The position numbers and the translations under genes are program-made. From positions 1 to 20,707 of IMG/VR virus record IMGVR_UViG_3300007229_000125: a DNA stretch of 20,707 nt; one strand, 5' to 3'. The notes beneath the pieces were generated by a model. The model did no database searches, had not been told where the DNA came from, and saw only the letters and a program-made list of their open reading frames with translations. This DNA is from a virus. Positions within the stretch are counted from its first letter, which is position 1; every line of letters begins with the position of its first letter. Positions 5,319 to 19,567 of this stretch are shown here, piece after piece.

Positions 5319-6052
5319 GTGAAGAACAAGTTACACCAACAGAATCTGCTACAGATACCCCAACAGAAACTACTGCACCTCCAAGTGTTACTGAGTCTGT
5401 AGCAGAACCAACAAGACCTGAAGGACTACCTGAGAAGTTTAATACTTGGGAAGATATGGCTAAGTCATATTCTGAGATGGAGTCTTGGAAAGGTAAAAAG
5501 ACTGAGGATATAAAAGCAGAAGTCTTGCAAGAACTAGAGACAGAAGCCTACTCTAACAGACCTGCAAGTTCAGGTGACTATCAAATACCTGAAGTATTAG
5601 ATGAGGGTGAAGCTGCAACTAATCCACTTCTTAAATGGTGGGCAGATTATTCTTGGGAGAATGGCTTATCACAAGATGAGTTTAATGAGGGAATAACTAA
5701 ATGGGCAGAGCATACTGGATCAAATCAACCTGACCTTGAAGCTGTAAAGAAAAGTCTAGGTGACAATGCTAACCTAAGAGTAGAAGCTACACAGTTATTT
5801 GTGCAGAAGTTTTTTCCTGAAGAGTTGCAAGATGCAGTTGCAGAACTGGGATCAACAGCAGAGGGAATCAAAGCATTAGAACTAATACAAAGATCAATGC
5901 AACAAACTAATGTTAATCCACAAGCCACTGCACCTGCTAAAACAACTATTGAAGATCTTATGACTAAGATGAAAGATCCTAGATACTATGATCCTACAAG
6001 AAGAGATAGGGCATTTGTTCAAGAAGTGACAGATGGCTTTAAGAGAATTTAA
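5315..6052 (+). CDS. Scaffolding (capsid assembly) protein
   Basis: This 245-residue acidic protein is expected to guide procapsid assembly around the portal and then leave. The N-terminus is a low-complexity Thr/Glu/Pro segment (residues 1-35). It is followed by PEGLPEKFNTWEDMAKSYSE, a motif typical of T7-like scaffold proteins, then a helical middle and a short C-terminal region with basic residues (DPRYYDPTRRDRAFVQEVT). That kind of C-terminal helix commonly binds the coat protein in scaffold proteins. It lies between the portal and capsid genes, its ATGA overlap couples it to the gene upstream, and its end overlaps the next gene by 20 bases. Confidence 0.88.
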   Translation: MSEEQVTPTESATDTPTETTAPPSVTESVAEPTRPEGLPEKFNTWEDMAKSYSEMESWKGKKTEDIKAEVLQELETEAYSNRPASSGDYQIPEVLDEGEAATNPLLKWWADYSWENGLSQDEFNEGITKWAEHTGSNQPDLEAVKKSLGDNANLRVEATQLFVQKFFPEELQDAVAELGSTAEGIKALELIQRSMQQTNVNPQATAPAKTTIEDLMTKMKDPRYYDPTRRDRAFVQEVTDGFKRI

Positions 6053-6566
6053 AGGCGAGGGTATCTATGATGGATACCCAATCGTCAAAGCCAAAGTAAG
6101 TCATGTAGATTACCTGCAAAATAACTTAAGAGATGCAGATGTTAGGGAGTGCATTATACATGGTGCTACTCCTTTTCGTGCATTGATGGCAGGTATTAGA
6201 GAACCAAATGGCGAAAGTTATACTGTAATGGTAGACAAAAAACCTGCTTTAATGTTTGGTTGCAACCCAATATACAGTAATATGATAGGTAAAATATGGG
6301 CATTAGGCACATATGATATTGAAAAAATACAAAGAAAGTTTTTAAAATGGTGCAATCCAGTAGTGGATTACTACCAAAAACAATATTATCAACTAGAAAA
6401 TGTAGTACCTGCAGACCATGCCAATACCTTATCATGGCTTGATTTCGTAGGTTTTGAGATTCTTGATCCACCAGTTATGATAAATGGTTTTGCAGTTTTA
6501 CGATTTGTACGTTGCAAAGGCGAAGAAATTTTGGTAAACAAAGAATATAGCCCAGTTGTTAGCTGA
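6033..6566 (+). CDS. T7 gp13-like internal virion protein (DUF2833, GNAT-like)
   Basis: This 177-residue protein matches the T7 gp13 / DUF2833 pattern. It has an LRDADVRECI...G helix, then V...KPALMFGCNPI, then GKIWALGTYDIEKIQRKFLK, then YQLENVVPADHANTLSWLDF followed by VGFEILDPP and a final FAVLRFVRC strand. The layout is that of an acetyltransferase (GNAT)-like fold (LENVV...N..S..WL...GF), but no enzyme activity is known to me for the phage family. In T7 gp13 is needed for assembly of the internal core. Here the gene lies between scaffold and capsid, away from the other internal virion genes, which is unusual. The ATG at 6033 overlaps the scaffold gene by 20 bases; tandem stops TGA-TAG end it. 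Confidence 0.8.
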   Translation: MALREFKGEGIYDGYPIVKAKVSHVDYLQNNLRDADVRECIIHGATPFRALMAGIREPNGESYTVMVDKKPALMFGCNPIYSNMIGKIWALGTYDIEKIQRKFLKWCNPVVDYYQKQYYQLENVVPADHANTLSWLDFVGFEILDPPVMINGFAVLRFVRCKGEEILVNKEYSPVVS

Positions 6567-8353: not shown

Positions 8354-10633
8354 ATGGCAAGAGTAAGAGTGCCATTAAATAACTTTCAGTTTGGAGAAGT
8401 TAGTCCTGCACTTACATCAAGAACAGATACTAAAGTATATACTAATGCTGCAGAGCAAGTAAGAAACTTTTTTATTAGATCAGAGGGTGGTCTAAAGAAA
8501 AGAACTGGCACAAAAAGACTTGCTAACTTTGGAAGCAACCCATCATTTACAGCAACAGCAAGTCTTAGACAGAGTGTTCGAATAGAACCATTTATATTTT
8601 CAGATGATGAAAAATATATAATAGCCTTTAGTAATACACGAATAGAGATCTTTCAGATAAATCCCAGTACTGGTGCAGTGGCATCTGTTCAGGCAATTAC
8701 CAGTCAATCATGGTTAGTGAATACAACATCAGCATCTTATCTTGAAGAGATTACCTTTGCACAACAAGGCGATCTAATGTTTATATGTCACAATACATTT
8801 CAGACTAGAATATTAGAACGTACTGGTCTTACAACTTTTGCAGTATCTACATTTAACTTTGATACATCACGAGATGATGAAGATATATTCCAACCATACT
8901 TTAGTTTTCAACCATTAGGTATGACTATGAGTTGTAATGCAACTACTGGAACAAGTAAGACCCTTACTGCTAGTGCTGATTACTTTGTGTCAGGTCATGT
9001 TGGTGTAGATCTTTTGATAGGTGAAACTCGTTGTCGTATTACTGCAGTAGCTAGTGCAACATCTGCTACAGTAGATATAGCAGGTACATTAAGACAGCAG
9101 TTAGAAATAGATAGTATAAAAACATTTGAAGGTAGTGGTACAGTAAGAGTTACCAAAGCCTTACATGGTTTAGCAACCAGTGCATCTATAACAATAGAAA
9201 GATCAGGTGCAGTTGGTGGTATTGCTAATAGTAATATCAATGGAAGCAGAACTATAACTGCTGTTCCTGATGAAAATACATTTGAATTTACTGCAGGTGG
9301 CAGTGCTACTGCTACATCTAGTGCCATTGGTGGAGGTAGTCCTCGTATTGTTACTGGTGCAGCTACTACTGAGTTTAGTGAAATGAGTTACTCACCCTTG
9401 AGAGGATATCCTGCGGCAGTTACATTTCATCAAAATAGATTATGGTTTGGTGGTACACTGGCACAACCTGATGGTATATGGGGTAGTAAGTCAGGACAGT
9501 TCTTTAACTTTGATGTAGGAGATGCAAGTGATAATGATGCTCTTGATCTTACTGCAAACGTAGGTGAGATATTTTCTATCAGACATTTGGTATCAAACAG
9601 AGATTTACAAGTCTTTACTACTGGTGCTGAGTTATTTGTTCAAGCACCAACTGATAAACCAGTGACACCTGCTAACGCACAGATACGCAGACAAACTCCT
9701 TATGGTGCATCATTTGTAAAACCTACAGTGTTTGATGGTGCGACTTTGTTTATACAGAAAACTGGTAGTGCATTGAGAGAGTTTCTATTTACAGACTCAG
9801 AGGCAGCATATACATCTGTGGCTGTATCAGGTCTTGCACCTCATTTAATATTAGATCCAGTACAGATGACATCAATCAAAGGTGCATTGAATAGAAGTGA
9901 GTCATATGCTTTTCTTATAAATAATGATGGCACTATAGCTGTATTCTATTCTGTTAGAGGAGATCAAAAAGCAGGGTGGACATTGTGGGATACACAAGGA
10001 ACATGGCATAGTATATGTGCAGTGCATGAAAGATTGTTTGTAGTTTGTGCTAGAGATGATGGATCAGGTACTACCAAGTTGTTTCTTGAGGAGTTCCAAA
10101 CAGATATGCCTATGGATTTCTGTGATACATTTAGTGGGAGCAGTAGTGCCTTTGGTAGTTTGGGGTCACACTTTGCCAATGATGCAGTCGTAAAGGCTAC
10201 AAATGGTAATGACTTTCTTGGATCATTTACTGTATCAGGTGCAGCAATAGATGCTAGTGCAGTAAAGAGTGGATTGTCTCAGGCATTTATTGGATATTCT
10301 TTTACACCTACACTTAAGACTTTACCTATAGATGCAAGTATACAAGGTGGTCCTTTGACTGGTGAGCCTAGACAAATACCTAAAGTCGTATTAGATTTGT
10401 TCTCAACATTAGCAGTTAGTGTTCAAGGCCCAAGTACAACATCAACAACAAGAGACTTGGTTATCAGGAATACTACAGATACAGTGTCAGGTGGCTTGAT
10501 GGAAAGGTCTGCTGTTACTGGCAAAGAGGAGTTTAGGTTATTGGGATATAGTCGTGATCCAAGAGTTATAGTATCACAGTCTTTTCCTTTGGATTTACAG
10601 ATTAACGGAATGATAGTAGAGGTGGCATTTTGA
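8354..10633 (+). CDS. Tail tubular protein B, T7 gp12-like nozzle
   Basis: This 759-residue protein forms the tail nozzle below the adaptor ring. It begins MARVRVPLNNFQFGEVSPAL with TSRTDTKVYTNAAEQVRNFF and EGGLKKRTGTKRL, the characteristic N-terminus of this family, and has the PAAVTFHQNRLWFGG motif (residues 353-367) and GSKSGQFFNFDVGD (377-390) of the middle region. Residues about 195-335 hold an extra Thr/Ser/Gly-rich beta insertion with the repeated-domain signature HGLA...VGGI...INGSRTI...NTFEFTAGG. The length is close to T7 gp12 (794). RBS AGGAGA sits about eight bases upstream of ATG 8354. The last bases overlap the next gene's TTG start. Confidence 0.93.
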   Translation: MARVRVPLNNFQFGEVSPALTSRTDTKVYTNAAEQVRNFFIRSEGGLKKRTGTKRLANFGSNPSFTATASLRQSVRIEPFIFSDDEKYIIAFSNTRIEIFQINPSTGAVASVQAITSQSWLVNTTSASYLEEITFAQQGDLMFICHNTFQTRILERTGLTTFAVSTFNFDTSRDDEDIFQPYFSFQPLGMTMSCNATTGTSKTLTASADYFVSGHVGVDLLIGETRCRITAVASATSATVDIAGTLRQQLEIDSIKTFEGSGTVRVTKALHGLATSASITIERSGAVGGIANSNINGSRTITAVPDENTFEFTAGGSATATSSAIGGGSPRIVTGAATTEFSEMSYSPLRGYPAAVTFHQNRLWFGGTLAQPDGIWGSKSGQFFNFDVGDASDNDALDLTANVGEIFSIRHLVSNRDLQVFTTGAELFVQAPTDKPVTPANAQIRRQTPYGASFVKPTVFDGATLFIQKTGSALREFLFTDSEAAYTSVAVSGLAPHLILDPVQMTSIKGALNRSESYAFLINNDGTIAVFYSVRGDQKAGWTLWDTQGTWHSICAVHERLFVVCARDDGSGTTKLFLEEFQTDMPMDFCDTFSGSSSAFGSLGSHFANDAVVKATNGNDFLGSFTVSGAAIDASAVKSGLSQAFIGYSFTPTLKTLPIDASIQGGPLTGEPRQIPKVVLDLFSTLAVSVQGPSTTSTTRDLVIRNTTDTVSGGLMERSAVTGKEEFRLLGYSRDPRVIVSQSFPLDLQINGMIVEVAF

Positions 10634-11103
10634 TAGAACTAGCAATAGCATCAGCATTTGTTTCAGCAATGGGATATCAACAAGCAGGTAAAGCAGCTAA
10701 GATGGAAGGTGCTTTAACTGCTCGTAATATAAAGACTCAAGGCAAAATAAGAAAATTACAAGCCTTACAAGAACATAATGATATTATGGCAAACTTAAAA
10801 TCATTTAAAGATCAAAATGCTGCATTAGCAGGAACTACTGGTAGAGCCGAAGATAGATCATATAAGGCATTAATAAAGAAAGCTGAAGAAGATAATAAAA
10901 CATTAGCACAAAGATCAAACTATCAAAATCTTGCAGAGCAAAGCAAGTATTCTCAACAAGCAGTTATGGCAGTTACAAAAGCCAACAATATATCTAGGGC
11001 ATATAGATATAAAGCATTTGGCACAATACTGAGTGCAGGATACAAAGCAAGTACTATGACTGGTGGTGGTATGGGTACAAGTAGAAGTGGAACTTATACA
11101 TAA
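10630..11103 (+). CDS. Internal virion protein, T7 gp14-like
   Basis: This 157-residue protein is expected to be ejected into the outer membrane region of the host as the first part of the DNA-transfer channel. The N-terminus has a hydrophobic helix (IELAIASAFVSAMGY, residues 2-16), then a long Gln/Lys/Ala-rich amphipathic helix, and it ends in a Gly/Thr/Ser-rich tail (TMTGGGMGTSRSGTYT). T7 gp14 is 196 residues with the same outline. The start is TTG at 10630, overlapping the TGA stop of the nozzle gene (TTGA). Its stop overlaps the next gene by one base. Position directly before two giant proteins fits the gp14-gp15-gp16 set. Confidence 0.82.
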   Translation: MIELAIASAFVSAMGYQQAGKAAKMEGALTARNIKTQGKIRKLQALQEHNDIMANLKSFKDQNAALAGTTGRAEDRSYKALIKKAEEDNKTLAQRSNYQNLAEQSKYSQQAVMAVTKANNISRAYRYKAFGTILSAGYKASTMTGGGMGTSRSGTYT

Positions 11104-14100
11104 TGGCAGAGTTTATTAGATCAAAACCTACTACATTTAGAAATAAACCAGTTGGTGTTGTTCGTGCTGACACTGGTGCAATTCAATTAGGCAATGCAGT
11201 TGCAGAATTAGGTAACTCTATGCAAAAAGTTTTTTGGGAAGAAGCTAGACAAGATGCTATAAAAGATGATGTGCAAAGAGCAAAGACATTAGCTGTTGCT
11301 GATAATGGTAAAGTTATATTTGAAAAAGCAAACTTTACGCAGGTAGGTACACCTTATGCAGAAAAAATATTAGCTCAAAGATATAGTGATGCTATTGGAC
11401 TTATGGCTAAAGGTGAGTTTGCAAAGTTACAAAGTGAAAACAGATATGATAAAGATACATTTGATACACAAGCAAATGGGTATATAGAAGCTCATGTAAA
11501 AAGTTTTAAAGATAATGGCATGGAACAATACATACCTGACTTTATAACTAAGATTACAAATCAAAAAGTTCTTCATTCTAATAAAATATTAAATGACACT
11601 ATTGCAAGAGATGAAAGAGTTGCAGCACAAAATACATTATTGACCACTAGAGATAATATAAATTCACTAGCAACCCTTACATATACAAAAGGAAACCTTG
11701 AAAAGAGTGATATAGAAGTAGAAGGTCCTGAAGTATTTACTCAAATAGATACAGATATAAATGAAACTGTTAATGAAATAACAGATAATATTAATAGTCT
11801 TGTGCAAGATGGACATATCAAAGCACCTGCTGCTGCTGATTTATTTTCAGAACTAAGAAGAAGTCAGGCACTTGGAACTGTGAGACAAGTAGTTGATCGA
11901 CTTGGTGAAAATGGTACTGCTATAAAAGGCATTGAACAGCTTATGCAAAGTAAGTATCCATCACAAAAACTTATTAATACAATTATAGAAATATCAGATG
12001 GTGCTGTTACTATAGATGATTTACAAAAAGTATTTGATCTTAAGAACAATTTAAATCTCTCAAGAACTGATATGGGCATTATTACTCGTGAAATTAGTAA
12101 TAGATCAGGTGATGCAGATAAACTAATGACTGCAATGGGAGATGATTATGCTACATCAAACTTTGCTAATTTATTAAATGGATCTGCAACATCACCTACT
12201 ATTTTACAGAATAATGATAAAACAAGAGATGGTTTAAATGCAGGTTTAAGCAAAGAGTTAGGCACAAAAATTACATCTATGAACTTATTAACTATGCCAC
12301 AAGAGCAATATGATATGGCATTACGAATGGTAAGAACACAACCTGTTGTACCTACATCAATGCACGAATTATTTAAACACCCTGATATAACAACATTAAC
12401 TGCTTTGGAAGGTGCTACACGATCACAAAAAACACAGTATCTTAATAGGGTATTAGATATGTGGAAAAATACTGCATATACAAAAGATGGTCGATCAAAG
12501 TTAAAAGGATATGATGATGAATACTTTAAGTTTATTGCTATTGATGCAGTAGCTAGGGCTAATGGTGGTGACATAGTTGATGCTTTTAATTATTTTTCTA
12601 GGATACCTGCTACTGAAAAAGATATTAATGAAAATATAAAACTTGTTGTTCAAGAGTTTTTACCTGAAGCTACCACTACTTCTGTTGATAAAAGTCTTGA
12701 ATCTGTATTAGCCAAGACAGATGTAAAGGCACAACATTGGAATCAAATGAAGCCTTATGTCCAAAAACTATTAGTATTTAAGAGATTAAAAGGTATTGGC
12801 AATGAAAAAATGGCAGAGTTTAATCTTGAGAATATGATTGATGTAATCAATGGCACTTATGATAAGTTATATATTGAAGATGAAACTATTTATGATGTGC
12901 AAAATCTAGGACTAAACGATCAAAGAACTAGATTTTCACCACAAAGAAAATATGTAGATGGCAACTATGATAAGTTTAAATTGTATGTAAACAATATGGT
13001 TGCTGAAACAACAAAGGTAGATGGTATTTTAGGATCAGAGTATTTTCTTTTGCCTGATTATAGAAATTCACAGTTTGGAGATCAAGCATACACAATAGTA
13101 AATGCAAATGGTATTCCAATATTAAATAATGAAGGTGTTGAAATATATTTTAACACTAAAGAATTTGATAAACAGTTGAGTTATGATGCAGAAGAAGCAA
13201 GAAAAAGAAGTATAAATCAAGTTTATAATTCAAGACTTTCTAAATTAAATGCAAAAGTGCCACCATCAGATCTCTCTTTATGGAAACCAAATGTCCAAAA
13301 TATAAAGTTTGCTGACTTTATTGGTAATGATAAAAGAGATCCTACTTATAACTCAACATTTAAATCAATAAAAAATCTTGAAACACCTATTATTTCAGGT
13401 GACTATGAATTAGCATCTGGAACTTTTAAATCAAAGTCACAACAAGAGTTTGAGGACTATGATAAATTTGGTGTAAGACAACAAGCAGGTACAAATAATC
13501 GTGTAGTTGATATACTGCAAAAGGGTACACTTAAAGAAGATGGCACAAGAGATAAATCATTTTCAGAATATGTTAATGGATTAGAAGATAGTTATATTGA
13601 AAAAAAGATAGCAGGTAAAGGATTTGAAAATCCATCTTGGCAATTAATAACTCGTGCCGAAACAATGAAAGAAGGTATGTTAGATGCATTAAGAGATATA
13701 AAAAGTTCTTTATTAACTCCTGATGTAGCTGTTGAAATACAAGATAACTTAATAGATATAGTAAACTATACTTCAGAAAAAGAAGATTTTAAAGTTGCAC
13801 CATATATAGATGCTAACACATTATCTATTGGTAGAGGTTTTAATATACAATATCTTACCGATCAAGATTATGAAAAGATGTCAGATAATTTAGCATCAAT
13901 GTTAAAACCACTTCAAGCATGGCTTAACTCAACACCCAAACGAACTACTGCACAACTTGTAGAAAAGATGAATGAGTTTAAAAGAAACTTAGGCGGATCA
14001 GAGGGCATGAAACAACAAGTAGCTGATTTAATTTATACAGATAAAATAAAAAAAATATATGAACAGTATAGTACTGAGTTTACAAATTTTGGAGAATTAG

Positions 14101-14399
14101 CTGTTGATAGACAAAAAGCTTTAATTGATTTTTCATATCAGTTTGGACATGACAGATTAAAGAGAGACTTTCCAAAGTATTATGAATCTATAACAAAAGC
14201 CATACTTACAGAAGATCCTGATTTAAGATCGTATTATTTTAGACAAGCAGGATTTCATCAAGCATATAATTATGGTGAGTTTGGTAATACAAAAACATTA
14301 ATACATAATCAAACAAGAAGCAGAGTTGGAGATAGAACTGGATTATTAGGGTTTTCTATAAGAGATGGTAGTAACTTTATGGATCAGGAGTACAATTAA
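11103..14399 (+). CDS. Internal virion protein, T7 gp15-like, with a C-terminal lysozyme-like domain
   Basis: This 1098-residue protein is placed as the gp15 equivalent by position between gp14-like and gp16-like genes. It is longer than T7 gp15 (747). Residues 1-880 are mainly helical, begin MAEFIRSKPTTFRNKPVGVV and lack recognised motifs. From about residue 880 the sequence resembles T4-type (GH24) lysozymes: Glu894, eight residues, Asp903, then LSIGRGFN (907-914), where Ser908 takes the place of the T4 Thr26. Further on, DRQKALIDFSYQFG (about 1003-1016) resembles the DALVSFVFNLG helix, and a final QTRSRV region resembles the NxxRRR end. The likely role is a local cut in peptidoglycan during DNA entry. 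The stop overlaps the next start by one base. Confidence 0.85.
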   Translation: MAEFIRSKPTTFRNKPVGVVRADTGAIQLGNAVAELGNSMQKVFWEEARQDAIKDDVQRAKTLAVADNGKVIFEKANFTQVGTPYAEKILAQRYSDAIGLMAKGEFAKLQSENRYDKDTFDTQANGYIEAHVKSFKDNGMEQYIPDFITKITNQKVLHSNKILNDTIARDERVAAQNTLLTTRDNINSLATLTYTKGNLEKSDIEVEGPEVFTQIDTDINETVNEITDNINSLVQDGHIKAPAAADLFSELRRSQALGTVRQVVDRLGENGTAIKGIEQLMQSKYPSQKLINTIIEISDGAVTIDDLQKVFDLKNNLNLSRTDMGIITREISNRSGDADKLMTAMGDDYATSNFANLLNGSATSPTILQNNDKTRDGLNAGLSKELGTKITSMNLLTMPQEQYDMALRMVRTQPVVPTSMHELFKHPDITTLTALEGATRSQKTQYLNRVLDMWKNTAYTKDGRSKLKGYDDEYFKFIAIDAVARANGGDIVDAFNYFSRIPATEKDINENIKLVVQEFLPEATTTSVDKSLESVLAKTDVKAQHWNQMKPYVQKLLVFKRLKGIGNEKMAEFNLENMIDVINGTYDKLYIEDETIYDVQNLGLNDQRTRFSPQRKYVDGNYDKFKLYVNNMVAETTKVDGILGSEYFLLPDYRNSQFGDQAYTIVNANGIPILNNEGVEIYFNTKEFDKQLSYDAEEARKRSINQVYNSRLSKLNAKVPPSDLSLWKPNVQNIKFADFIGNDKRDPTYNSTFKSIKNLETPIISGDYELASGTFKSKSQQEFEDYDKFGVRQQAGTNNRVVDILQKGTLKEDGTRDKSFSEYVNGLEDSYIEKKIAGKGFENPSWQLITRAETMKEGMLDALRDIKSSLLTPDVAVEIQDNLIDIVNYTSEKEDFKVAPYIDANTLSIGRGFNIQYLTDQDYEKMSDNLASMLKPLQAWLNSTPKRTTAQLVEKMNEFKRNLGGSEGMKQQVADLIYTDKIKKIYEQYSTEFTNFGELAVDRQKALIDFSYQFGHDRLKRDFPKYYESITKAILTEDPDLRSYYFRQAGFHQAYNYGEFGNTKTLIHNQTRSRVGDRTGLLGFSIRDGSNFMDQEYN

Positions 14400-17300
14400 T
14401 GAGATTAGAATATACTGGTACAAAACCACAAGGTTTTAATCCTACTGGTGATCTTGCTACTCTTGTTGAGCCATTACATTCTATTTATCCTGATAGTGAG
14501 GGTAGAGTTGATCCAACATTTTTTGAAGGATTTAAAGCTAATTTTAAATATCAATGGTTGCCTATAACAAATTCTACTGCAGAATATTTTAATTTTATAG
14601 ATACACCATATGATGAATCTTTTGATTGGCTTGGTGAAATACAAAAGAATGAAGATTATTTTTTTGCTGATGAATTATCAAGAGCCAAAAACATGGAGCA
14701 TTATCAATACATTAAAAATGATTTAATGGCTATGCAACAGAATCGTGAGGTGTTTCAACGATCAGGTATAGGTGCAACATTAGTGGCAGGTGTTGTTGAT
14801 CCATTAAATATTGCTTTCTTCCACCCAGTTTTTAATACTGGGATAAGAGCAGCATGGGCAGCTAAGTCTGCTTTTGGTGTGGCAAAGGAATCAGGCAAGA
14901 TAGGTTTTTTGTTTGGTATGGGGAGTGAAGCATTACGAGCGCCTTTTGATCCATTTAACACATATGCTGAATCAGTAACAAACATTGCAGGTAATACAGT
15001 ATTTGCAGGATTGCTTGGTGGTGGTGCAAGAGGAGTTACAAATAAATTTAGTAATATAGTAGCTAATCATAAAGCTAAAAAGAATCCTGATGCTAAAATA
15101 GGTAATAATAATTATAATTTAAAACAAACTATTATAGATGGTTTGAGTCAAGGTAAGCAGTTTCCTGATTATGTTTTTCATAGAACAACTAGAAATGTAA
15201 ATATTAATAAGCAAGGTTTAACTTCAGGAGGTGTGCAAGGTAATAATCCTATAGAAGATATGGGTTATGGTGATGTTGTTTATGTTTTTAAAAGAGAGGA
15301 CTTTCCGTTTGATAAAGGCTTTGATGGTGCTGATGTTGCTTTTATAAAAGAGGGATACACACCTGCTAAACCAGTTACAGCTTTTCATATAGACGAAATT
15401 GTAGATTCACAAGGTAGATACAAACAAGGTGGATCACGAACAGATGAACTGGGAGATGATCGAGTTCAAGAAGAAGCATATAGGAAAGCAATAGGACAGA
15501 GCAAAGAACAATATTATGGTGCTGAAGTTTTAAAAGCAGAAAGACAGAACTTTGAAGAACAAGTAAAGTTATTAGATAAAGACTTTAGAATGAATCAAAA
15601 GTTTGATGTGCCACTTGATAAAGAGCCAGTAATGAAAGGTTCTTCATTAAAAGAATTAACTATAGATAAACTTAGTTTTTTAAACAAGTTGATTCCATCA
15701 AGACGTTTGCACTTTGGTAAATATGATGGTCAGGAAGCACCTGCAAGTGTTAGAGATATTAATATGCAGATTGCTTTTAATGGTGCAGTAGGTATGAAAG
15801 GTAGACCAGTACAATCTATAGATGTTATGCAACAAGTATATAATGCTAAAGGTTTAGAGGTTGAGCAATTTATTGACAATCTTTATATGCAACAGTTTTA
15901 CAAAACACAAGGTACTGGCAAGATTGCAGGTGTAGATTATATATCTCCATATCAGTTTGCACAAGACAAGTTAGGTAAACAATTACAAACTAAATATTAT
16001 AATGATGCTACACAAGATTACTTTAAAGCTATGCCATCTAAAGAAGAATTTAGAGCTGAAATAGTTGAATTACAAATATTGAATGGTAATCCATCTTGGA
16101 ATAAATCTTATTTTGCAAACCTGCCTGAATATAAGAGACAAGGCATGGAACGTATATCTAAATTTTATAGAGACTTTGATGAGTTGGCACAAGATGTAGG
16201 AGTATTTCATACACCTGAAAGTGTAAAGACTGCACAAATAAAACTACAAGATCGTATTGATGAACTTGGTGAAAAGATTAAATCTGAAAGAGATCCTGCC
16301 TCTAAAGAAATATTTAGATTGAGTATGAAACAACTTTTGGAAAAAAAATCTTTCTATGATGGCTATCAACAAACTCGTAATAATTATAAGTGGGCAATCT
16401 ATTATGACAAGATGATGCTTATGAATGATCCTGAACAACAAAAAAAATTGGCAGGTGTGTTTGCCGATCATTATTTAGGTCAAGGTTTTATTACTAGATG
16501 GACTGGAACAAGTAATGAAAGACTACCAATAACAAGTTTGGAACAAGCACAAAAAGCTGCAGATGAAGATGTGTCACACATTCTTTCTATGGGTGATGAT
16601 CCTATGGGATATAGTACACCACTTGGTATTGGTAAAGGTAAACATATAATGATGAGAACTACCAATATACCTGAGTGGAAAGTAAAAGATTTTATTGTAA
16701 AAGATCTTGGTGTTTTATCTCAATATGCAAAGAACATGGGGTTTAGAATTGAATATGCTCGAAAGTTTGGTGATGATACTATTGATTATATAATGGATAT
16801 GCTTGAAGCAGAAATGCAATCTTCAAAAAAATATACGCAACGAGCAATAGCAAATATAAAGTCTGATCTTTTAGCTGATTATGAAAGAGTGGCAGGTCAA
16901 ATGACTAGAGAACCTAACAGATGGGATACAAAGTTTGCTCGTATATCTAAAAAGTTTTCAGGTGTTACCTATCTTACTGGTGCAGGTATTACTGCAGTAA
17001 CAGAAACAGTGGCAATGCCTATACTTGAGCATGGATTTGGCAATGTTATTAAAGGTGTATTTAGAAGTCTTGATGGTAATTTTGATAAGATGAGACTAAA
17101 TGCAAAACAAGTGTTGCATACTGGTGAAAGTTTGGAAATGGCTAGACCTATTGCTCAAGACAAATATCTTGGTGAAATGACACGACCATTGCAAATGGGG
17201 AAGATAGAAAAAGGTGCAGAGGCAATGGAAAACCTTTTTTATAAATTTAACTTTTTATCTATTGTTACAACGTTGGGAAAACGAGTTGATTCTGCTGTAA

Positions 17301-18229
17301 GAATACCAAAGTTTTACGATCAAATAAAAAATTATGATAGTCTTGATAGATTTGATATTGATGAACTTGAGAGATATGGAATAACAAGGGATCTTGCAAA
17401 AAGATTATATGAAAATGGTGCTTGGCAGTTTACTGATTCTGATACCCCTTTGTTAAATATACAAGGGTGGTCTACGAAAACTAAAGCTGATAGAGAGCTT
17501 AGATCACAAATGGAAACATATCTTAATAATGGTGCAAGAAATACTATTATGCACGCAACAGCATTTGATAGACCAACAATGGCAGATGGATTTGTATTTA
17601 AAAAGTGGAAACCATACATGGCAAAAATGGGAATACAACCTGATCCACGAGCATCTGTAGGTAAATTAGCAGATGGCACATATCGTTATCCTATTGCTAG
17701 AATTGAGTCAGGTGTAATGGCTTTTCCTTTTCAATTTTATAATTTTTCGTTTGCTGCAAATCAAAGGATATTAAGACCTATGTTTGATCCTAATAAAAAA
17801 CATAGATTAGCAGGTGCTATTGCTCTTATGGGTATGTCATACTTAGTACTAGCCACAAGAAAACCTGATTGGTGGTTTAAGGATAAAGATTATTCAGAAT
17901 TATTTATGCAAGTAGCCGATAGATCAGGAATAGCAGGTTTATATTCTGAAATTGCTTATAGAGGAATAGAAGCATCTGCTGCATTTGGGTTGCATAATCC
18001 TGATAATACATGGTTAAAAGGTAGATACAATGCTACTGGTTGGGATTCTGCATTTGGAATGTTAGGTGCTACACCAAACATGTATAGAGAATGGGTTGAT
18101 GGTGCTAACGATCTTCTTAATGATAGAACAGAAGAAGGATTAAAAACATTATCATATAATGCACCAATATTAGGTTTGTTAGGATTAGATGATGATTTGC
18201 GATCTATTGCAGGTGGTAGAAATAGATAG
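14399..18229 (+). CDS. Internal virion protein, T7 gp16-like, with an ART-like segment
   Basis: This 1276-residue protein is the likely gp16 counterpart, the largest ejected protein, which forms the inner-membrane channel and helps pull DNA in. Its size (T7 gp16 is 1318) and last place in the gp14-gp15-gp16 order fit. The N-terminus lacks the transglycosylase motifs of T7 gp16. Hydrophobic segments occur at about residues 124-141 (IGATLVAGVVDPLNIAFF), 196-210, then later (VTYLTGAGITAVTETVA) and near the C-terminus (LAGAIALMGMSYLVLA). Residues about 250-345 (VFHRTTRN...GL...VVYVF...VTAFHIDEIV) resemble an ADP-ribosyltransferase-like fold, with possible His261, Tyr295 and Glu333. The start overlaps the previous stop by one base. 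The ART call is tentative. Confidence 0.85.
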   Translation: MRLEYTGTKPQGFNPTGDLATLVEPLHSIYPDSEGRVDPTFFEGFKANFKYQWLPITNSTAEYFNFIDTPYDESFDWLGEIQKNEDYFFADELSRAKNMEHYQYIKNDLMAMQQNREVFQRSGIGATLVAGVVDPLNIAFFHPVFNTGIRAAWAAKSAFGVAKESGKIGFLFGMGSEALRAPFDPFNTYAESVTNIAGNTVFAGLLGGGARGVTNKFSNIVANHKAKKNPDAKIGNNNYNLKQTIIDGLSQGKQFPDYVFHRTTRNVNINKQGLTSGGVQGNNPIEDMGYGDVVYVFKREDFPFDKGFDGADVAFIKEGYTPAKPVTAFHIDEIVDSQGRYKQGGSRTDELGDDRVQEEAYRKAIGQSKEQYYGAEVLKAERQNFEEQVKLLDKDFRMNQKFDVPLDKEPVMKGSSLKELTIDKLSFLNKLIPSRRLHFGKYDGQEAPASVRDINMQIAFNGAVGMKGRPVQSIDVMQQVYNAKGLEVEQFIDNLYMQQFYKTQGTGKIAGVDYISPYQFAQDKLGKQLQTKYYNDATQDYFKAMPSKEEFRAEIVELQILNGNPSWNKSYFANLPEYKRQGMERISKFYRDFDELAQDVGVFHTPESVKTAQIKLQDRIDELGEKIKSERDPASKEIFRLSMKQLLEKKSFYDGYQQTRNNYKWAIYYDKMMLMNDPEQQKKLAGVFADHYLGQGFITRWTGTSNERLPITSLEQAQKAADEDVSHILSMGDDPMGYSTPLGIGKGKHIMMRTTNIPEWKVKDFIVKDLGVLSQYAKNMGFRIEYARKFGDDTIDYIMDMLEAEMQSSKKYTQRAIANIKSDLLADYERVAGQMTREPNRWDTKFARISKKFSGVTYLTGAGITAVTETVAMPILEHGFGNVIKGVFRSLDGNFDKMRLNAKQVLHTGESLEMARPIAQDKYLGEMTRPLQMGKIEKGAEAMENLFYKFNFLSIVTTLGKRVDSAVRIPKFYDQIKNYDSLDRFDIDELERYGITRDLAKRLYENGAWQFTDSDTPLLNIQGWSTKTKADRELRSQMETYLNNGARNTIMHATAFDRPTMADGFVFKKWKPYMAKMGIQPDPRASVGKLADGTYRYPIARIESGVMAFPFQFYNFSFAANQRILRPMFDPNKKHRLAGAIALMGMSYLVLATRKPDWWFKDKDYSELFMQVADRSGIAGLYSEIAYRGIEASAAFGLHNPDNTWLKGRYNATGWDSAFGMLGATPNMYREWVDGANDLLNDRTEEGLKTLSYNAPILGLLGLDDDLRSIAGGRNR

Positions 18230-18262: not shown

Positions 18263-19567
18263 ATGACTATAGCATTAAGTGCAAATACTCCACGAGTGAG
18301 TTACACAGTTAATCAGGGTGCGAGTCAAACCTCATTTGCTGTACCATTCGTATTTTTTACTGCATCAACAGATCTCAATGTTTTTGTTGACAATGTTGCA
18401 CGGACATTTGATGCCAGTACATCAAACACATCTCTATATACTGTGAGTGGTGGCAGTGGTTCTACTGGAACTGTAACAACTTCTGTTACTGGTGCTACTG
18501 GTGGCAGTACTGTTGTCATCACAAGAGCAGTGCCATTGTCTCGTACCACAGACTTTCCAAGTTCAGGTGCATTTGAGATATCAAAACTAAATACAGAGTT
18601 AGATACTGTTACTGCTATTCAGTCTGATTTCAATGATTCTGCATCAAGAGCAATAAGATTACAAGATTCTGACAGTGCAGTATCTATGGAGTTACCATTA
18701 CTGGCTAGTCGTAAAGGCACAGTTCTAGGATTTAATGCAAGTACTGGTGCTGCAGAGGCAGGACCTACAATTACTGCAGTGCAGTCTTTATCGGCAGTCA
18801 CAGCATCTATTGCTTTATTAGGTACTTCTGCTGTTGTTGAGGACATGGGTTTACTTGCCACATCTGCGGTCATAGAAGATATGGGGATATTAGCTACGTC
18901 TGCTAACGTAACAGCTATGGGATTACTAGGAACTAGTGCTGTTGTAGCTGATATGGCTTTGTTAGGAACTTCTGATGTTGTGGCAGACATGGCATTGTTA
19001 GCTACTTCTGATGTAATAGCTGATATGAATACATTAGCAACAAGTGATATAATTACTGATCTTAATACACTAGCTACCAGTGACATTGTTACTGATATGA
19101 ATCTATTGGCAACTAGTGATAATGTTACAGCAATGGGTTTACTTGGAACGTCAGGTAATGTTACGGCAATGGGTTTACTTGGAACAAGTGCTGTTGTTGA
19201 GGATTTAGGATTACTAGCTACAAGTACTGTCATTGAGGACATGGGAATACTAGCAACAAGTGCCAATGTAACTGCAATGGGATTGTTAGGTACAAGTGAT
19301 GTTGTTACTGATATGGGATTGTTAGGTACGTCTGCAGTTGTAGAAGATATGGGTTTGTTAGGAACAAGTGCTAACGTAACAAACATGGCAACATTGGGTG
19401 CAAGTGGTGTTGTTGCAAACATAGCCACAGTAGCAGGTGCAAATTCTAACATATCAACTGTTGCAGGCTCAATATCTAATGTGAATACAGTAGCAAGTAA
19501 CATAGCAACAATTTCATCTAAGGCATCTTTAGATGATGCAACTGCCTTAGCAATAGCTTTAGGATAA
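18263..19567 (+). CDS. Short tail fibre with T7 gp17-like anchor and repeat shaft
   Basis: This 434-residue protein begins with a T7 gp17-type N-terminal anchor. The segment VSYTVNQGASQTSFAVPFVF (residues 11-30) with VFVDNVARTF and GGSTVVITRAVPLSRTTDF, then a SKLNTELDTVTAIQSDF helix, follows the order of the domain that binds the tail tube. After a linker, 17 repeats of 12 residues (185-388) form the shaft, and a degenerate TVAG/SNVNTVAS region plus a short end (LDDATALAIALG) close it. No C-terminal receptor-binding domain is present, so tip functions must come from other proteins, probably the small genes that follow. RBS AAAGG lies about ten bases before ATG 18263. Confidence 0.85.
   Translation: MTIALSANTPRVSYTVNQGASQTSFAVPFVFFTASTDLNVFVDNVARTFDASTSNTSLYTVSGGSGSTGTVTTSVTGATGGSTVVITRAVPLSRTTDFPSSGAFEISKLNTELDTVTAIQSDFNDSASRAIRLQDSDSAVSMELPLLASRKGTVLGFNASTGAAEAGPTITAVQSLSAVTASIALLGTSAVVEDMGLLATSAVIEDMGILATSANVTAMGLLGTSAVVADMALLGTSDVVADMALLATSDVIADMNTLATSDIITDLNTLATSDIVTDMNLLATSDNVTAMGLLGTSGNVTAMGLLGTSAVVEDLGLLATSTVIEDMGILATSANVTAMGLLGTSDVVTDMGLLGTSAVVEDMGLLGTSANVTNMATLGASGVVANIATVAGANSNISTVAGSISNVNTVASNIATISSKASLDDATALAIALG
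18815..19426 (+). repeat. 17 tandem 36-base units (12-residue fibre repeats)
   Basis: Seventeen in-frame units of 36 bases encode LL(G/A)TSxVVxDMx-type dodecamers. Two forms alternate: one ending VVEDM or VIEDM, the other NVTAM. Units 1-4 (from 18815) and 11-14 (from 19175) have nearly the same order of forms, which suggests an ancient duplication offset by ten units. Units 9 and 10 are nearly identical in DNA (19121-19149 and 19157-19185), which suggests a recent copy. Synonymous differences, such as TCT versus AGT for Ser, separate most units. Confidence 0.9.

What the first reader, a model, noticed from the sequence alone, without database searches (positions are those of the whole stretch)
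13740..14357. A T4-type lysozyme-like domain at the C-terminus of the gp15-like ejected protein
In T7 the murein-cutting activity of the ejected proteins is an N-terminal transglycosylase in gp16. Here the gp15-like protein has a C-terminal segment with Glu894, an eight-residue gap, Asp903, then LSIGRGFN, and a later DRQKALIDFSYQFG. This follows the E-8-D-5-T and DALVSFVFNLG pattern of GH24 lysozymes, with the Ser one residue nearer than Thr in T4. It suggests that another enzyme family, in another ejectosome protein, does the job. The match is by motif and not alignment.
Basis: partly seen in the sequence, partly recalled or inferred. Interest (0 to 1): 0.75.

Follow-up and report, generated by a model that had tools for sequence, protein, structure and literature searches.

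The report
Hidden lysozyme on a phage tunnel protein
A marine virus of bacteria appears to carry a very divergent T4-type lysozyme on the end of one of the proteins it injects to build a DNA tunnel, an arrangement already known from phages such as SP6 but here too diverged for standard annotation to see.

Summary
In detail: the 1098-aa ORF 11103-14399 has E894, D903 and S908 as described, and E-x8-D-x4-S is kept in 24 of 24 distinct domain sequences. The window protein has no Pfam or PHROG lysozyme match; 2 of 10 family members match Phage_lysozyme, below cut-off. Profile comparison with GH24 domains matches both halves in order, with E/D/S on the catalytic columns. C-terminal half: 0 of 200 column shuffles reach the score; catalytic half: 1 of 200 once a motif-selected GH24 row is left out. 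Segments of the gp15-like and gp16-like families outside the domain score far lower. An AlphaFold2 model (pLDDT 66, pTM 0.60) is closest to pesticin and T4 lysozyme by VIA-align; Foldseek against PDB is not significant, and the Glu/Asp stretch has pLDDT under 50. SLT, which T7 carries in gp16, is absent from 14 of 14 virus records searched, window included. Most likely a virion-borne muramidase for entry. The arrangement is known: SP6 gp36 and K1E gp35 have a GH24 domain at the same place and the same D-x4-S spacing. New, strongly diverged member of a known kind.

The parts
11103..14399 (+). gp15-like ejection (tunnel) protein, 1098 aa; its start codon overlaps the stop of the gene before by one base, and its stop overlaps the next start by one base
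   Evidence: called gp15-like by place and size between gp14-like and gp16-like genes, not by sequence (no match of residues 1-800 to T7 gp15 or to Hodr's 783-aa protein)
13716..14396 (+). C-terminal GH24 (T4 lysozyme)-like module, residues 872-1098
13782..13784 (+). Glu894, predicted catalytic acid
   Evidence: aligned to the GH24 catalytic Glu column
13809..13811 (+). Asp903, predicted second catalytic residue
   Evidence: aligned to the GH24 Asp/Cys column
13824..13826 (+). Ser908, in the place of the T4 Thr
   Evidence: aligned to the GH24 Thr column; Ser at the same D+5 place in SP6 gp36 and K1E gp35
14106..14147 (+). DRQKALIDFSYQFG, counterpart of the GH24 'FDALVSFxxNxG' helix
14298..14336 (+). 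LIHNQTRSRVGDR, possible counterpart of the T4 lysozyme 'QTPNRAxR' segment (T4 segment recalled; tentative)
   Evidence: sequence; Q, T, R and V in it are invariant in A4
14399..18229 (+). gp16-like internal virion protein, 1276 aa, without the T7-type SLT domain
   Evidence: phrog_342 E 1.3e-27, matched only at profile positions 223-1048 of 1235; no Pfam family at E<=10; no SLT in the record
10630..11103 (+). gp14-like internal virion protein (weak), 157 aa from a TTG
   Evidence: phrog_418 E 0.01
8354..10633 (+). gp12-like tail nozzle protein
   Evidence: Phage_nozzle E 2.2e-14, phrog_376 E 9e-106

Best explanation
The last ~230 residues of the gp15-like ejection protein form a highly diverged GH24-type (T4 lysozyme-like) muramidase. 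It is packaged in the head as part of the ejected core. On infection it is carried into the periplasm on the gp15 tunnel and cuts the murein glycan locally so that the tunnel can cross the wall; it takes the role that the gp16 N-terminal SLT transglycosylase has in T7. Glu894 would be the general acid, with Asp903 and Ser908 completing the site. Shown here: the motif and its conservation, profile similarity to GH24 over both halves, a lysozyme-like predicted fold for the C-terminal lobe, absence of SLT from gp16 and from the record. Inferred: catalysis, packaging, ejection, and the role in entry rather than lysis.
For: Both halves match a GH24 profile in the right order, with E894, D903 and S908 on the catalytic columns. 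With all 36 rows: N-terminal half 24.9, C-terminal half 31.6, 0 of 100 column shuffles reaching either; whole domain 31.4 against a shuffle maximum of 23.2, reversed domain 13.3. Without L106 (a GH24 found by a motif pattern) and one duplicate, 34 rows: whole 31.5 (0 of 100), C-terminal half 31.8 (0 of 200), N-terminal half 21.1 (1 of 200). Of 29 sliding segments of the gp15-like and gp16-like families, the four gp15 segments that reach into the domain (starts 676-899) score 22-30, the other 9 at most 15.3 and the 16 of gp16 at most 16.7; domain against SLT 15.3. Model pLDDT 65.8, pTM 0.60: VIA-align pesticin Z 9.7 (rmsd 3.9, 160 aligned), T4 lysozyme Z 8.5 (rmsd 3.5, 135 aligned); 16 of Foldseek's top 20 PDB rows name T4 lysozyme, probability up to 0.77; BFVD rank 2 is a phage lysozyme, probability 1.00, E 0.053. 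E-x8-D-x4-S in 24 of 24 distinct domains. No SLT in 14 of 14 virus records (window and 13 relatives), nor in Hodr; T7 as positive control rings. SP6 and K1E have the same layout, and a review lists SP6 Gp36 as an internal head protein with lysozyme activity (passage). 4 of 15 records searched encode a separate GH24 endolysin, among them the three records of 31-33 kb, so lysis can be served elsewhere.
Against: No Pfam or PHROG lysozyme hit for the window protein; Phage_lysozyme only in 2 of 10 members, 18.3 and 18.4 bits against a cut-off of 22.3 and over the middle of the profile; endolysin PHROGs in 4 and 2 of 10 members at best E 0.012 and 0.014. hhalign probabilities are low: 42% whole, 12-35% N-terminal half, 59% C-terminal half, 7% for a forced global alignment. 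The N-terminal half loses strength without L106. Residues 1-34 of the model, which hold Glu894 and Asp903, have pLDDT under 50, and VIA-align's first aligned pair (model 23 with T4 residue 1) does not put Glu894 on T4 Glu11. The phages' own endolysins do not align with it over the catalytic half. No biochemical evidence.
Confidence: 0.78

Rival explanations
1. A GH24-fold domain that has lost or reduced catalysis and serves as a murein-binding or structural part of the tunnel.
For: Strong divergence from GH24 (sub-threshold in Pfam); Ser for Thr and a one-residue shorter D-to-S loop; extra residues between the hairpin and the C-terminal helices (global alignment).
Against: Glu, Asp and Ser are invariant in 24 of 24 distinct domains (partly selected set) although identity to the window falls to 53%; SP6 gp36 and K1E gp35 have the same D-x4-S spacing, and so has a Pfam-positive GH24 (L106), which however was found by a motif pattern.
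Confidence: 0.14
2. Not a lysozyme: a helical tunnel segment whose motif resemblance and model similarity are fortuitous.
For: No significant Foldseek PDB match; no family HMM above cut-off; low hhalign probabilities; VIA-align Z of 8-10 on a mostly helical model can be a common arrangement (tool note).
Against: Two half-profile matches in the right order with catalytic columns in register; no segment of the same proteins outside the domain scores alike; T4 lysozyme and pesticin lead the structural rows.
Confidence: 0.06
3. An active lysozyme whose main role is at lysis rather than at entry.
For: GH24 is a usual endolysin family (recalled).
Against: It is fused to a gene that lies between gp14-like and gp16-like genes; relatives with longer contigs carry a separate ~148-aa GH24 endolysin (4 of 15 records).
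Confidence: 0.02

Closest known systems
SP6 gp36 and K1E gp35 (gp15-like internal virion proteins with a C-terminal GH24 domain)
   Same: Same place in the gene order; GH24 domain near the C-terminus (Phage_lysozyme E 6.6e-10 at 770-905 of 978, and E 3.9e-10 at 776-910 of 982); D-x4-S-[VI]-G-Y-G; no Pfam SLT in the next gp16-like protein (SP6 at E<=0.1; K1E at E<=0.01).
   Different: Those domains pass Pfam's cut-off; their Glu-to-Asp stretch looks longer (Glu not assigned by alignment). Similarity to the window family is confined to the 'QRGLMDLSYNLG' part (score 30.9 for SP6, 21.0 for K1E, single sequence against profile).
phiKMV gp36 and PhiM1 OEP (PhiM1_42)
   Same: Reported with a C-terminal lysozyme domain (phiKMV Gp36, putative internal head protein; passages) or a lysozyme-like domain at Gly718-Ser903 of the OEP (PhiM1; passages).
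   Different: PhiM1_42 showed no profile similarity to the window domain or to the GH24 set; phiKMV gp36 was not fetched, and that it is the gp15-like protein was not checked.
T7 gp16 N-terminal SLT transglycosylase
   Same: A murein-cutting domain carried on an ejected core protein.
   Different: Another family (SLT, Pfam E 1.7e-31, residues 15-127), in gp16; absent here.
T4 lysozyme and pesticin (lysozyme fold)
   Same: Best VIA-align matches of the model (Z 8.5 and 9.7); E-x8-D spacing as in T4 (recalled).
   Different: About 14% identity; Ser in place of Thr, one residue nearer; extra residues after the hairpin.
Pelagibacter phage EXVC031P Hodr
   Same: Closest record of the phage collection by portal protein (57.9%); homologous gp16-like protein (E 3e-24).
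   Different: Its protein in the gp15 place is 783 aa and shows no similarity and no lysozyme domain; no Phage_lysozyme hit in its record.

Membership tests
GH24 / Phage_lysozyme (PF00959) | Score above Pfam's curated cut-off | tested here: not met
   Window protein not listed at E<=10; best relatives 18.3 and 18.4 bits against 22.3. It is therefore called GH24-like, not a PF00959 member.
GH24 / Phage_lysozyme (PF00959) | Catalytic Glu, Asp and Thr in the E-x8-D-x5-T arrangement (recalled) | tested here: inconclusive
   Glu and Asp met at the right spacing; Ser at D+5 instead of Thr at D+6; invariant in 24 of 24; the same D-x4-S in SP6 gp36, K1E gp35 and the Pfam-positive L106.
GH24 / Phage_lysozyme (PF00959) | Profile similarity along the domain | tested here: met
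   shuffles; segments; weaker for the N-terminal half (1 of 200 shuffles) without L106; hhalign probabilities low.
GH24 / Phage_lysozyme (PF00959) | T4 lysozyme fold with the catalytic residues in the cleft | tested here: inconclusive
   Fold of the C-terminal lobe supported; the Glu/Asp stretch is at pLDDT under 50.
GH24 / Phage_lysozyme (PF00959) | Cleavage of the MurNAc-GlcNAc bond | not testable with these tools
   Needs an assay.
gp15-like ejection protein with C-terminal lysozyme (SP6 gp36 kind) | Gene between gp14-like and gp16-like genes in the virion operon | tested here: met
   Nozzle, weak gp14-like (phrog_418 E 0.01), the 1098-aa ORF, gp16-like; one-base overlaps.
gp15-like ejection protein with C-terminal lysozyme (SP6 gp36 kind) | Lysozyme-like domain at the C-terminus | tested here: met
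   computed, not measured.
gp15-like ejection protein with C-terminal lysozyme (SP6 gp36 kind) | No SLT transglycosylase in gp16 | tested here: met
   (T7 positive control); N-terminal segments of the gp16-like family score at most 10.8 against SLT, T7 gp16 114.3.
gp15-like ejection protein with C-terminal lysozyme (SP6 gp36 kind) | Sequence similarity of the tunnel part to T7 gp15 or SP6 gp36 | tested here: inconclusive
   None convincing (SP6 gp36 best at E 0.045, probability 1%); the review says gp15-like proteins are mostly matched by size and synteny.
gp15-like ejection protein with C-terminal lysozyme (SP6 gp36 kind) | Packaged in the virion and ejected | not testable with these tools
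   Needs proteomics or cryo-EM.

The most novel reading that the evidence does not exclude
This clade of marine podoviruses defines a distinct, so far unannotated GH24-like subfamily (E-x8-D-x4-S, extra residues after the hairpin) that lives on the gp15 tunnel protein, one copy per tunnel subunit, so that a ring of lysozymes would sit where T7 places its gp16 wings. Comparable hidden hydrolases may be the rule in gp15-like proteins of marine podoviruses whose gp16 lacks SLT.
Probability: 0.4. Interest if true: 0.5.

Novelty: new member of a known kind. Interest (0 to 1): 0.35.

Why it matters
How a short-tailed phage breaches the wall is usually read from family HMMs; for the window protein both libraries scanned (Pfam, PHROGs) stay silent although a likely wall-cutting domain is present. 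The case adds a separate lineage to those in which the ejectosome's murein hydrolase sits on gp15 instead of gp16, and it names a residue (Glu894) to test.

Tried and rejected
Family scans of the window domain gave only chance hits (SRP54_N, Cro, RPN6_N). phmmer and hmmsearch of PDB sequences: nothing relevant. tblastn in 50,697 phage records: no match for the protein or the domain (the tool says that near records may be left out); a diverged relative gave four hits at E 5-8, three of them annotated lysozyme or endolysin, not counted as evidence. Genome contigs with the domain alignment: no relative. A broader Y-x-D-x3-L-x-IG-x-GF-[ND] pattern brought no further gp15-like relative among its six new loci, but one GH24 (L106). 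First AlphaFold2 model (pLDDT 58, pTM 0.52): no lysozyme in the Foldseek rows shown, though pesticin and T4 lysozyme led its VIA-align rows; the second model, trimmed and with 20 sequences, is used. hhalign of the domain against the phages' own endolysins (3 sequences): E 0.048, probability 1%, over 36 columns. hhalign against PhiM1_42: nothing. Host: a 148-aa endolysin at 67% identity lies in a contig of a Pelagibacter MAG, but none of ten window proteins matches that 19-kb contig, so no host is claimed. Promoter and terminator scans of 10500-14700 were at background. Literature: five searches; no listed title or abstract start reports a lysozyme on the gp15-like protein of this marine group; that is from listings only. 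Passages were seen of PMC8954989 (and its section 4 in full), PMC11440229, PMC10386132 and PMC5380687.
Full report
WHAT IS THERE. The window is a 20,707-base virus record. It carries a T7-like virion module on the + strand: terminase, portal, capsid, gp11-like and gp12-like tail genes, a weak gp14-like gene, the 1098-aa ORF 11103-14399, and a gp16-like gene 14399-18229. The three core genes overlap by one base each. The protein is gp15-like by place and size only: neither T7 gp15 nor the 783-aa protein at the same place in Pelagibacter phage Hodr aligns with its first 800 residues. A review says that gp15-like proteins are mostly matched by size and synteny (PMC8954989, section 4, read).

MORE THAN CHANCE. 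The first motif appears in 13 of 20,000 shuffles of the protein, the motif plus the later YQxG element in 0 of 20,000, and the first motif in 0 of 317 other six-frame ORFs of loci L002-L097. Relatives were found in IMG/VR contigs and, by structure, as one unnamed 1004-aa viral protein in BFVD; none was found in the phage collection or in genome contigs. Identity over the domain is 53-99%. With a profile of the C-terminal half alone, 74 ORFs were picked up; 8 were too short upstream and dropped; the other 66 are 24 distinct domain sequences, and 24 of 24 have E-x8-D-x4-S. The set is partly selected: patterns hold the D/S stretch or part of it, and some patterns hold Glu894; other patterns of the same calls, such as FRQAGFH, do not.

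IS IT GH24? Direct family scans fail for the window protein. Of ten family members (window included), two match Phage_lysozyme at E 0.003, below cut-off, over profile positions 36-85 of 125. I then built a GH24 set of 36 domains from Pfam-positive loci of other genomes and from related phages. hhalign gives 31.4 for the domain against 13.4 +/- 2.4 (maximum 23.2) for 100 column shuffles, and 13.3 for the reversed domain. Split in two, the half with E894-D903-S908 scores 24.9 (shuffles: mean 10.9, maximum 21.7, 0 of 100) and the other half 31.6 (mean 12.6, maximum 21.0, 0 of 100); the alignment puts E894 on the GH24 Glu, D903 on the Asp/Cys column and S908 on the Thr. One of the 36, L106, had been found with a motif pattern, and L110 repeats L108. 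Without these two rows the whole domain scores 31.5 (0 of 100 shuffles), the C-terminal half 31.8 (0 of 200) and the catalytic half 21.1 (1 of 200, maximum 21.9), with the same residues in register. So the C-terminal half is the firmer part and the catalytic half is suggestive. hhalign's own probabilities are modest (12-59%), and a forced global alignment gives 7%. In 29 sliding segments of the gp15-like and gp16-like families, the four that reach into the domain score 22-30 and the others at most 16.7; against an SLT profile the domain scores 15.3 (this used the 36-row set).

STRUCTURE. The second AlphaFold2 model (20 sequences, trimmed) has pLDDT 65.8 and pTM 0.60, with residues 1-34 under 50. 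VIA-align: pesticin Z 9.7 (rmsd 3.9, 160 aligned) and T4 lysozyme Z 8.5 (rmsd 3.5, 135 aligned). Foldseek against PDB: T4 lysozyme first at E 0.57, probability 0.77, and named in 16 of the top 20 rows, but no row below E 0.001. BFVD: first the 1004-aa unnamed viral protein, 49% identical, E 9.3e-12; second a phage lysozyme, E 0.053, probability 1.00. The fold is likely; the geometry of the active site is open.

WHERE IS THE USUAL ENZYME? The gp16-like protein matches phrog_342 only from profile position 223 on and has no Pfam hit. SLT was sought in 16 records: 0 of 14 virus records (the window and 13 relatives) and not in Hodr; T7 gives E 5.8e-33. Many of these records are fragments. Of 15 records searched for Phage_lysozyme, 4 have a separate GH24 protein, the three of 31-33 kb and one of 18.5 kb (the last with an in-frame TGA); the other 11, among them the window, two of 27-28 kb and Hodr, have none. 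Three of these endolysin ORFs are 148 aa. So the gp15-borne domain is not needed to explain lysis where the contig is long enough to tell.

HOW IT WOULD WORK. In T7, gp16-N with its transglycosylase forms wings on the gp15 tunnel (PMC8954989, passages). Fusing a lysozyme to the gp15 C-terminus would put a murein-cutting domain on the tunnel by another route. This is inference.

KNOWN PRECEDENT. SP6 gp36 and K1E gp35 have Pfam-positive GH24 domains near the C-terminus, D-x4-S spacing, and gp16-like neighbours without a Pfam SLT hit at the thresholds used. The 2022 review states that the hydrolase domain can swap from gp16 to the gp15 homologue and names K1E and K1-5. The 2017 review lists SP6 Gp36, K1-5 Gp38 and phiKMV Gp36 as virion lysozymes and reports lytic activity and a C-terminal lysozyme domain for phiKMV Gp36 (PMC5380687, passages). 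The PhiM1 cryo-EM paper describes a lysozyme-like domain in its OEP (PMC11440229, passages).

Noticed in passing
15101-15601 (gp16-like ORF, residues ~235-401): A lineage-specific insert with FPDYVFHRTTRN...GDVVYVFKREDFP, present in 10 of 14 gp16-like proteins aligned and absent from the four 1120-aa ones (L096, L097, L045, L068); no Pfam hit at E<=1. The HR...GL...GDVxYVF pattern recalls ADP-ribosyltransferase-like folds (recalled, untested).
   Followed up: partly
18263-19567: ORF after the core genes with a sub-threshold LED-repeat match (Pfam E 4.2e-11, 43.4 bits against a cut-off of 59); perhaps a tail fibre by place.
   Followed up: no
6033-6566: A gene between the head-assembly-like and capsid genes matches phrog_308 'internal virion protein' (E 9e-28), away from the other core genes.
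   Followed up: no
L005 / L060 (IMGVR_UViG_3300025508_000122): A near-identical contig has the gp15-like frame broken inside the lysozyme-like domain (ORF ends ...KRDFPSIMNL); a sequencing or assembly error is likely, not checked.
   Followed up: no
L106:3-434 (-): A Pfam-positive GH24 (E 1.1e-11) has the same E-x8-D-x4-S-IG-x-GFN motif as the window; it was found by a motif pattern and the contig's origin was not checked.
   Followed up: partly
L099 (G006:C1:16826-17200): The GH24 endolysin match of one relative holds an in-frame TGA.
   Followed up: no
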